In this document: positions 14,906 to 41,441 of the stretch, one piece after another
Position numbering within the stretch: position 1 is the first letter of the stretch
How the letters are laid out: every line of letters starts with the position of its first letter
From: Armatimonadota bacterium
GTDB taxonomy: Bacteria; Armatimonadota; UBA5829
Length of the DNA: 41,441 bases
Assembly: GCA_012522575.1 (NCBI GenBank)
Contig: JAAYKE010000008.1
Location: 1 to 41,441, forward strand
Direction: 5' to 3'
Position numbers and translations under genes: made by a program
The notes under the pieces: model-generated
The model's input: only the letters and a program-made list of their open reading frames with translations
Told to the model about the DNA's origin: nothing
Databases searched by the model: none

Positions 14906-15206
14906 GAATAATGAGCGCCCATACCCGTAGTGTCCGATCTCCGTCTCGGACAAGGCCGTTTAGAGGTTAGAAGTTGGAAGTTAGAGGTTAGAATGTTTAT
15001 TGAGAGGGTTCGAGTAGGCTCCAAATTTAGTCATTCCGAGGCGAAAGCCGAGGAATCTGCTTTTTCCCTTCCCATTTCCGGGTTTCGCTTCTTTCGAGCT
15101 TTCGCGATTCACGGAAAATCAGATTTCTCACTTCGTTCGAAATGACAAGGGTTGTGTGGCAGGCGCCAAAACCAGCCACTATCACTCACGAAGAGTGATT
15201 TGTTAC
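14898..15206 (+). repeat. Composite MITE-like dispersed repeat, copy 1
   Basis: The element has GTAAC...GTTAC ends. Its outer left end reads GTAACCACGAATAATGAG and its right end contains CACTCACGAAGAGTGATTTG before GTTAC. Inside, a TAGAGGTTAGAAGTT-type repeat (14960-14992) is followed by a 119-bp imperfect palindrome (15029-15147). The palindrome runs from GTCATTCCGAGGC to TTCGAAATGACA, with CAGATTTCTCACTTCG near its right side. The same order recurs at 23683-23957 (inverted) and at 40988-41180 (interrupted). No ORF is credible inside. Together with the tandem repeats it fills the gap between aroA and the next gene. Confidence 0.85.
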
Positions 15207-23682: not shown

Positions 23683-23957
23683 GTAACAACTCACTCTTCG
23701 TGAGTGATAGTATTGGCTGGTCTCCGTCCCAGCCACATAAACTATTTCATTTCGAACGAAGTGAGAAATCTGTTTTTCCGTAAATCGCGAAAGCTCGAAA
23801 GAAGCGAAACCCGGAAAAGAGAAGGGAAAAAGCAGATTCCTCGGCATTCGCCTCGGAATGACAAAAATTGGAGGCTACGCATAACCCTCTCAATAACTCT
23901 TCTAACCTCTAACTTCCAACATCTAACCTCAAGACCTCATCATTCGTGAGCTGTTAC
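23683..23957 (-). repeat. Composite MITE-like dispersed repeat, copy 2 (inverted)
   Basis: A complete 275-bp copy in the opposite orientation to copy 1, bounded by GTAAC (23683) and GTTAC (ending 23957). The ends are imperfect inverted repeats (GTAACAACTCA and GTAACAGCTCA on opposite strands). It contains the palindrome (23747-23863) and the CTAACCT-type cluster (23901-23929). It fills most of the gap between the oxidoreductase and the serine hydrolase. Copy 2 preserves the CAGATTTCTCACTTCG site that is broken in copy 3. Confidence 0.85.
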
Positions 23958-40987: not shown

Positions 40988-41180
40988 GTAACTGCTCACG
41001 AATGATGAGGTCTTGAGGTTAGATGTTGGAAGTTAGAGGTTAGAAGAGTTATTGAGAGGGTTCGAGTAGCCTCCAAATTTTGTCATTCCGAGGCGAAAGC
41101 CGAGGAATCTGCTTTTTTCCTTCCCTTTTCCGGGTTTCGCTTCTTTCGAGCTTTCGCGATTTACGGAAAAGCAGATTTCT
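40988..41180 (+). repeat. Composite MITE-like dispersed repeat, copy 3, interrupted by IS110
   Basis: Begins with GTAACTGCTCACGAATGATGAG, matching the end of copy 2, followed by the TTAGAGG-type cluster (41012-41044) and the palindrome from GTCATTCCGAGGCG (41082). Sequence agreement with copies 1 and 2 is close until GCAGATTTCT (41171-41180), then stops abruptly. The missing half begins CACTTCGTTCGAAATGACA in the intact copies. Confidence 0.92.
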
Positions 41181-41207
41181 TGTATTAATTACTTGTCTGT
41201 CTATAAT
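41180..41207 (+). promoter_or_regulatory. IS110 left-end promoter
   Basis: TATAAT (41202-41207) is a perfect -10. TTGTAT (41180-41185) is a possible -35 with a 16-base spacer and begins with the last T of the target core. In a circular form the -35 could instead come from the right end, as reported for other IS110-type circle junctions. Confidence 0.6.
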
Positions 41208-41213
41208 GGTGGA

Positions 41214-41380
41214 TTATAGGACGCTATGGTCCACCTGGCAGTGGGAACGTGCAGATTTCAGTGCGTGAGAGCACGTTGGTGAGATTGTTTCCTCTGTCTT
41301 AATAAAGGCTTAGTCCGGACGGTATCCTGTGTCCCAGATGTGTGGCGAACCCGTATGTGCAAGAATGGACGCCTAATAGA
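41214..41380 (+). ncRNA. Candidate IS110 bridge RNA
   Basis: The noncoding leader contains structures expected of a bridge RNA. GGAC/GTCC forms a 5' hairpin (41219-41232). A 7-bp stem AACGTGC/GCACGTT (41246-41252 with 41271-41277) encloses an 18-base loop AGATTTCAGTGCGTGAGA. The loop matches the target: AGATTTC equals the left side of the insertion site and GTGAG is complementary to CTCAC on the right side. A second domain is closed by AGGC-TTA-GTCC (41306-41316) and GGAC-GCCT (41367-41374), and contains GTGCAAG, which pairs with the element's first bases (CTTGTAT) with two G-U pairs. Ends are approximate. Confidence 0.75.
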
Positions 41381-41393
41381 CAGGAGTGGCAAA

Positions 41394-41441
41394 TGCAATA
41401 TTTAGGAATTGATGTATCTAAGGACGGATTCGACGTAGCTC
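41394..41441 (+). CDS. IS110-family transposase (DEDD recombinase), N-terminal fragment
   Basis: Starts at ATG 41394 with AGGAG eight bases upstream. The first residues, MQYLGIDVSKDGFDVA, are the diagnostic start of the IS110 RuvC-like DEDD domain: the Asp in GIDVSK is the first catalytic acid. The frame is open at the window edge. It uses a bridge RNA for target and donor choice in the family members studied. Confidence 0.93.

What the first reader, a model, noticed from the sequence alone, without database searches (positions are those of the whole stretch)
41171..41277. IS110 leader carries a readable guide for the exact repeat it has cut
The element is inserted at GCAGATTTCT (41171-41180) inside a dispersed repeat; two intact copies (about 15120-15137 and 23755-23772) show the uninterrupted site CAGATTTCTCACTTCG. 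The leader contains GCAGATTTC at 41251-41259, a 9-nt copy of the left target half, and GTGAG at 41265-41269, complementary to CTCAC (core CT plus right half). Both lie in and beside one 18-base loop closed by the perfect stem AACGTGC/GCACGTT. A chance 9-mer match in about 210 bases is expected roughly 0.001 times. This is the layout expected of the target-binding loop of an IS110 bridge RNA (left and right target guides), here for an element aimed at palindromic MITE-like repeats.
Basis: partly seen in the sequence, partly recalled or inferred. Interest (0 to 1): 0.9.

Follow-up and report, generated by a model that had tools for sequence, protein, structure and literature searches.

The report
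IS110 element with repeat-targeting bridge RNA
The contig ends inside a jumping gene of the IS110 family whose leader encodes a small RNA with guides matching both the repeated host sequence it inserts into and its own ends, so it is a new, well-supported member of the recently discovered bridge-RNA elements rather than a new kind of system.

Summary
The host is Armatimonadota; the contig ends 49 bases into the recombinase gene. I found a second copy and a right end in the same genome, and a related element (7 left ends, 6 right ends) in another genome of the family. Together they give core CT, left target GCAGATTT-CT, right target CT-CACTTCG, and donor GACGGTAT-CT-TGTATTA. All four guides can be read: left target guide 41251-41259, right target guide 41279-41283, left donor guide 41318-41326, right donor guide 41355-41363, plus both 'handshake' guides. 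The related element covaries: right guide GCGAG for CTCGC sites, handshake GA for TC.

Two extras: the ends carry 10-11 bp sub-terminal inverted repeats, usually an IS1111 trait; and the host genome holds 13 element-free repeat copies in which the target octamer is replaced by the element's right-end octamer, probably footprints of past insertions. No transcript or activity was tested.

The parts
41062..41180 (.). Interrupted copy of the host's dispersed palindromic repeat: outer arm GTCATTCCGAGGC..GAGGAATCTGCTTTT, centre, then AAAAGCAGATTTCT up to the junction
   Evidence: 98 outer arms and 122 target-side arms of this repeat in the 3.06-Mb genome; the outer arm of this copy is listed at C38:41082-41115
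41171..41180 (+). Left target GCAGATTT plus core CT (41179-41180)
   Evidence: Same junction in the second copy (G000:C172) and in 7 left ends of the related element in G011
41181..41187 (+). Right donor half RD, TGTATTA (first bases of the element)
   Evidence: Common start of all left ends; -10-like TATTAA at 41183-41188 lies 17 bp from TTGACA of the right end across the circle junction
41192..41201 (+). Left copy of the 10-bp sub-terminal inverted repeat CTTGTCTGTC, partner GACAGACAAG in the right end at G000:C19
   Evidence: 7 of 3000 shuffles reach it; 11 bp in G011 with a compensatory T-A to C-G change
41208..41235 (+). 5' stem-loop of the predicted bridge RNA
   Evidence: Consensus fold, pairs kept in all five rows
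41237..41298 (+). Target-binding loop: basal stem 41237-41248/41287-41298, apical hairpin 41261-41264/41271-41274
   Evidence: RNAalifold consensus; one C-G/U-A double change and several single-side changes kept; C172 lacks the U-U mismatch seen here
41251..41259 (+). Left target guide GCAGATTTC
   Evidence: 9-nt identity to left target plus core C; related elements match their own targets, not each other's
41279..41283 (+). Right target guide GTGAG, pairs with CTCAC (core CT plus right target)
   Evidence: Right target read at G000:C19:97-127; G011 has GCGAG for CTCGC
41284..41285 (+). Handshake guide AT of the target-binding loop, pairs with the last two bases (AT) of the left donor half
   Evidence: positions as IS621 nucleotides 81-82 (PMC11208158)
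41318..41326 (+). Left donor guide GACGGTATC
   Evidence: Identical to the right end of the element, GACGGTAT-CT, at G000:C19 and in G011
41355..41363 (+). Right donor guide ATGTGCAAG, pairs with core CT plus TGTAT
   Evidence: 8 of 9 bases as IS621 nucleotides 157-165 (AUUUGCAAG, deduced from the pairs listed in PMC11208158) including its G-T wobble
41364..41365 (+). Handshake guide AA of the donor-binding loop, pairs with TT of the left target
   Evidence: G011 has GA for TC
41393..41441 (+). Start of the IS110 recombinase gene, MQYLGIDVSKDGFDVA, cut by the contig end; ribosome-binding-site-like AGGAG at 41382
   Evidence: G011 homologue N-terminus (48 aa) hits PF01548 at 5e-6 and NF033542 'IS110 family RNA-guided transposase' at 2e-8, both below curated cut-off, as expected for a 48-residue piece

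Best explanation
The window ends in the left end of an IS110-group insertion sequence (IS621/bridge-RNA type). After excision the element would be a circle whose junction reads GACGGTAT-CT-TGTATTA and forms a promoter (TTGACA, 17 bp, TATTAA). That promoter would transcribe the leader as a bridge RNA of roughly 180 nt. The first loop of the RNA pairs with both strands of the host repeat, GCAGATTT-CT-CAC. The second pairs with the two halves of the circle junction. The recombinase would then exchange strands at the CT core. Shown here: both ends, the core, all guide-to-site matches, and their covariation in a related element. Inferred: transcription, RNA-protein complex, chemistry and present activity.
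For: Second copy in the genome at the same target. Right end GACGGTATCT|CACTTCG found at the start of C19. Related element in G011: all 7 left ends at AGCAGATT(Y)CT and all 6 right ends at GACGGTATCT|CGC. Consensus fold with the two-sided target loop. RTG plus handshake pairs 7/7 in both elements despite different sites; 7 of 8, 9 of 9 and 7 of 8 in three other elements. LDG identity 9/9 and RDG match with the IS621 wobble. Own-versus-swapped left-guide test: 9 of 12 distinct elements match their own target by 8-10 nt; 1 of 264 swapped pairs reaches 8. The 48-aa start of the G011 recombinase is IS110-like.
Against: The recombinase itself is not in the assembly: no PF01548 or PF02371 match in the genome, only 16 residues in the window. 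The donor-binding loop is not the free-energy minimum; with the guides kept unpaired it costs about 6 kcal/mol. The left guide does not match the core T, unlike IS621. Two relatives (L206, L207) show no guide match at their sites and L204 only a partial one. No RNA data.
Confidence: 0.93

Rival explanations
1. One reading: one hairpin AACGTGC/GCACGTT with an 18-base loop presenting both GCAGATTTC and GTGAG 41265-41269.
For: The stem is perfect in this copy and the fold is only about 3-5 kcal/mol above the alternatives (-18.3 against -21.0 and -23.7).
Against: The stem is mismatched in the second copy (GCTCGTT) and in G011 (GACGAGC), and the proposed right guide is CTTGA in G011, which pairs with no right target there. 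The GTGAG at 41279 changes to GCGAG exactly as the site changes.
Confidence: 0.04
2. The 9-mer in the leader is a captured scrap of the host repeat or a chance match, with no guide role.
For: The repeat is abundant, with about 120 target-side arms, so scraps are available.
Against: Match length and position recur in relatives with unrelated targets. The flanking bases are bridge-RNA structure, not repeat. Three other guides match at the expected places.
Confidence: 0.02
3. The architecture is right but the element is dead: a relic or one of a few fixed copies, no longer mobile. This is compatible with the best explanation of how it worked.
For: Only two left ends and one right end were seen in this genome; the basal stem here has a U-U mismatch; the second copy has a broken apical pair.
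Against: The copies are 98% identical, the ends are intact, and assembly breaks at the element suggest several near-identical copies.
Confidence: 0.25

Closest known systems
IS621 and its bridge RNA (IS110 group; Durrant 2024 PMC11208160, Hiraizumi 2024 PMC11208158)
   Same: Leader-encoded RNA, 5' stem-loop, target loop with LTG/apical hairpin/RTG/handshake, donor loop, CT core, near-identical donor-guide logic (RDG 8 of 9 bases), junction promoter, palindromic REP-type target.
   Different: Target and guides are different. The left target guide leaves the core T unpaired. The element has 10-11 bp sub-terminal inverted repeats where PMC11208160 reports 2-3 bp for IS110-group elements. Host phylum Armatimonadota.
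IS1111 group and seekRNA (Siddiquee 2024 PMC11187229)
   Same: Sub-terminal inverted repeats of about the length typical of IS1111 (usually 11-13 bp there).
   Different: The guide RNA lies upstream of the recombinase gene, the right end is short, and the spacing of repeat to core is 7 and 11 bp, against terminal extensions of 7 and 3 bp reported for IS1111.
REP-targeting IS110 elements (ISPa11, ISPpu9, ISPpu10, ISRm19, IS621; Tobes and Pareja 2006 PMC1525189)
   Same: Selective insertion into an abundant extragenic palindrome.
   Different: A different repeat family and host phylum; those papers predate the guide RNA.

Membership tests
IS110-group bridge-RNA element (IS621-like) | DEDD recombinase with PF01548 and PF02371 domains | tested here: inconclusive
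   Only 16 N-terminal residues in the window; the G011 homologue gives 48 N-terminal residues (PF01548 5e-6, NF033542 2e-8, below cut-off) and a C-terminal fragment with no domain hit. The full gene is missing from both assemblies.
IS110-group bridge-RNA element (IS621-like) | Non-coding RNA in a long left end with 5' stem-loop and two loops | tested here: met
   About 212-nt leader; consensus 5' stem-loop and target loop; the donor loop is supported by guide matches, not by energy.
IS110-group bridge-RNA element (IS621-like) | LTG and RTG pair with opposite strands of the target around the core | tested here: met
   covariation with G011 and other relatives.
IS110-group bridge-RNA element (IS621-like) | LDG and RDG pair with the element's own joined ends | tested here: met
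   GACGGTATC 9/9 and ATGTGCAAG with one G-T.
IS110-group bridge-RNA element (IS621-like) | CT core at both ends, no terminal inverted repeats | tested here: met
   Left and right junctions in two genomes.
IS110-group bridge-RNA element (IS621-like) | Promoter reconstituted across the circle junction | tested here: met
   Sequence only: TTGACA-17-TATTAA in G000, TTGACA-17-TATTAT in G011. Transcription not testable here.
IS110-group bridge-RNA element (IS621-like) | Only 2-3 bp sub-terminal inverted repeats (typical trait, not a strict definition; exceptions published in PMC11187229) | tested here: not met
   10 bp in G000 and 11 bp in G011 with compensatory change; relatives L203, L204, L209 show 5 bp and L201 6 bp, within shuffle range.
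IS1111 group | Guide RNA in the right end, downstream of the recombinase gene | tested here: not met
   The right end is only about 25 bp from stop codon to core; the guides are in the left end.
IS110-group bridge-RNA element (IS621-like) | RNA expressed, bound by the recombinase, required for recombination | not testable with these tools
   Needs RNA sequencing and in vitro assay.

The most novel reading that the evidence does not exclude
The bridge recombinase has been rewriting the host's palindromic repeats. Element-free repeat copies carrying the exact half-sites LD-core-RT (13 exact) and LT-core-RD (at least 5) would be products or footprints of guided recombination, making them hybrid sites on which the same RNA could act. 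The element would also combine a left-end bridge RNA with IS1111-style long sub-terminal repeats.
Probability: 0.3. Interest if true: 0.65.

Novelty: new member of a known kind. Interest (0 to 1): 0.42.

Why it matters
It is a natural test of the bridge-RNA rules in the phylum Armatimonadota. Two sister elements with slightly different targets changed the right guide and the donor-loop handshake base in step with the site, which supports the published model, including handshake pairing, on independent sequences. The host genome carries over 100 target copies and a set of hybrid half-sites. If these are confirmed as footprints, they would show what guided recombination leaves behind in a genome over time.

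Tried and rejected
Rfam search of the junction region: nothing beyond a chance SprD match. PF01548 and PF02371 searches of the genome for the recombinase: none; the assembly breaks at the element. DNA search for the leader through 291 Armatimonadota genomes: only this genome and G011. The G004 match (85% over 38 bases) is upstream of a gene that is not IS110, and I did not use it. Viral contigs: no relatives and no leader motif. L042 matched the start of the gene by shared codons only. An AAGACGGTATCTTG hit in G002 looked like a joined circle junction, but its surroundings are unrelated. G011:C15 reads as N and could not be used. I considered chance and captured-repeat origins for the 9-mer and rejected them by the swapped-pair test.

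Full report
What is there. The window is contig C38 of a 3.06-Mb Armatimonadota assembly. The phylum follows because a genome in the same phylum set, G266, carries a 29,792-base IS110 contig that appears to be the same as one in a Candidatus Zipacnadia record. The contig stops 49 bases into an open reading frame, MQYLGIDVSKDGFDVA, the typical start of an IS110 recombinase.

Other copies. In the same genome the leader occurs once more, at the end of contig C172 (98% identical), again directly after GCAGATTTCT. In G011, from another genus of the family, a related element (about 75-82% identical) lies at seven contig edges. Its left flanks are AGCAGATTCCT, AGCAGATTTCT or AGCAGATTCT, so the shared part begins at CT. 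Reading the contig ends of G011 gave six right ends, all GACGGTATCT followed by CGC, mostly of a palindromic repeat. Searching with one of them gave the right end in the window's own genome, at the start of C19: the last codons of the recombinase, TTGACAGACAAGACGGTATCT, then CACTTCGTTCGAAATGACA. Target, core and donor are thus read from sequence, not assumed: LT GCAGATTT, core CT, RT CACTTCG; LD GACGGTAT, RD TGTATTA.

The RNA. An alignment of the two leaders gives a consensus fold with a 5' stem-loop, a 12-bp basal stem 41237-41248/41287-41298, and an apical 4-bp hairpin. The internal loop carries GCAGATTTC on its 5' side and GTGAG-AT on its 3' side. This is the order stem, LTG, stem-loop, RTG, handshake guide described for IS621 (PMC11208158). 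One basal pair changes on both sides (C-G to U-A) and others on one side.

Guides against sites. RTG plus handshake: GTGAGAT pairs fully with AT-CT-CAC here, and GCGAGAT fully with AT-CT-CGC in G011. Relatives L201, L203 and L204 pair 7 of 8, 9 of 9 and 7 of 8. LDG: nine of nine in G000, G011 and L201. RDG: ATGTGCAAG, against AUUUGCAAG deduced for IS621 from the pairs listed in PMC11208158, including the G-T wobble. Donor-loop handshake: AA for TT here, GA for TC in G011; in the more distant relatives the first handshake base pairs in L197, L198 and L201 but not in L203 and L204. The left guide was tested against swapped partners over 19 junctions: own mean 8.05 nt, swapped mean 4.7, and 1 of 264 swapped pairs reached 8. 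Two relatives, L206 and L207, had no match at their sites. For the donor loop, energy alone does not favour the open form.

Its stem is broken in the second copy and in G011. The right guide is the next GTGAG, at 41279-41283.

Ends. The circle junction would read TTGACA-17 bp-TATTAA (G011: TATTAT), as expected of the junction promoter reported for IS621 (PMC11208160). Flanking the donor is an inverted repeat, CTTGTCTGTC/GACAGACAAG (10 bp). In G011 it is CTTGCCTGTCA/TGACAGGCAAG (11 bp), one pair changed on both sides. Four relatives with both ends known show nothing beyond chance. IS110-group elements are described as having 2-3 bp repeats (PMC11208160) or none, or short and imperfect ones, with some exceptions (PMC11187229). 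I therefore treat this as a departure from type within a known group.

Hybrid half-sites in the host. Of 122 target-side arms of the repeat in the genome, 100 were listed. About 90 carry GCAGATTT (or a near variant) before CT and 10 carry GACGGTAT (or a near variant); there is no third class. Of the 98 mirror arms, which lack the right target, none carries GACGGTAT; with 12 of 122 counted (two more known among the unlisted), Fisher p = 0.0007. The exact string AAGACGGTATCTYR occurs 14 times in this genome (13 in host repeats, one the right end). It occurs six times in G011, all right ends, and not in repeats of the other 17 genomes of the order. Twelve of the sites inspected share 10 bases with the element's right end before the core and two share 14 (this set includes one site followed by CT-GAC). 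The complementary form, GCAGATTT-CT-TGTATT followed by host sequence, occurs five times at four loci in about 138-bp units, and a further site reads GCAGATTTCTTGTATG. My reading is footprints of past insertions of this element, some copied with the repeats. A short shared AAG on both sides would also allow simple deletion. Guided recombination among repeats is possible but not shown.

Verdict. The kind is known since 2024; the element is new in its host and target, and the half-sites deserve follow-up.

Noticed in passing
G000: C19:3327, C26:4295, C31:63107, C63:3937, C74:2997, C76:10401, C107:9221, C107:12533, C141:27383, C141:27595, C154:7751, C181:6551, C187:10873 (L177-L189): Element-free host repeats in which the target octamer GCAGATTT is replaced by the element's right-end octamer GACGGTAT before the same CT core; never in the mirror arm of the palindrome.
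   Followed up: partly
G000: C31:49128-49420, C36:2634-2787, C103:40547-40700, C165:12942-13095 (L190-L192, L195): About 138-bp units, two in tandem at C31, that begin TTGTATT(N)TT at the CT core after GCAGATTT and end in GCAGATTTCT again, like the element's left junction without the element.
   Followed up: partly
L092 (G011:C11:78700-79151): A truncated relative: the recombinase gene start runs to GGATTGAAT-CT and is then joined to a right-target repeat CGCTAATCC, as if an internal site had been used as donor end.
   Followed up: no
G000 genome-wide; window 41018-41046, L184, L185, L189: Two further dispersed low-complexity repeats, TTAGAGGTTAGAAGTTAGAGG and TCGGACATCGAACTTCGGACATCGAA, often abut the palindromic repeat.
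   Followed up: no
L204 (Acinetobacter plasmid NZ_CP127913.1): IS110 relative in another phylum with the same donor half AAGACGGTAT-CT at its right end as the window's element.
   Followed up: partly
window 41202-41207: A perfect TATAAT 16 bp after TTGTAT (41180-41185) inside the left end could be a second promoter active in the inserted state.
   Followed up: no
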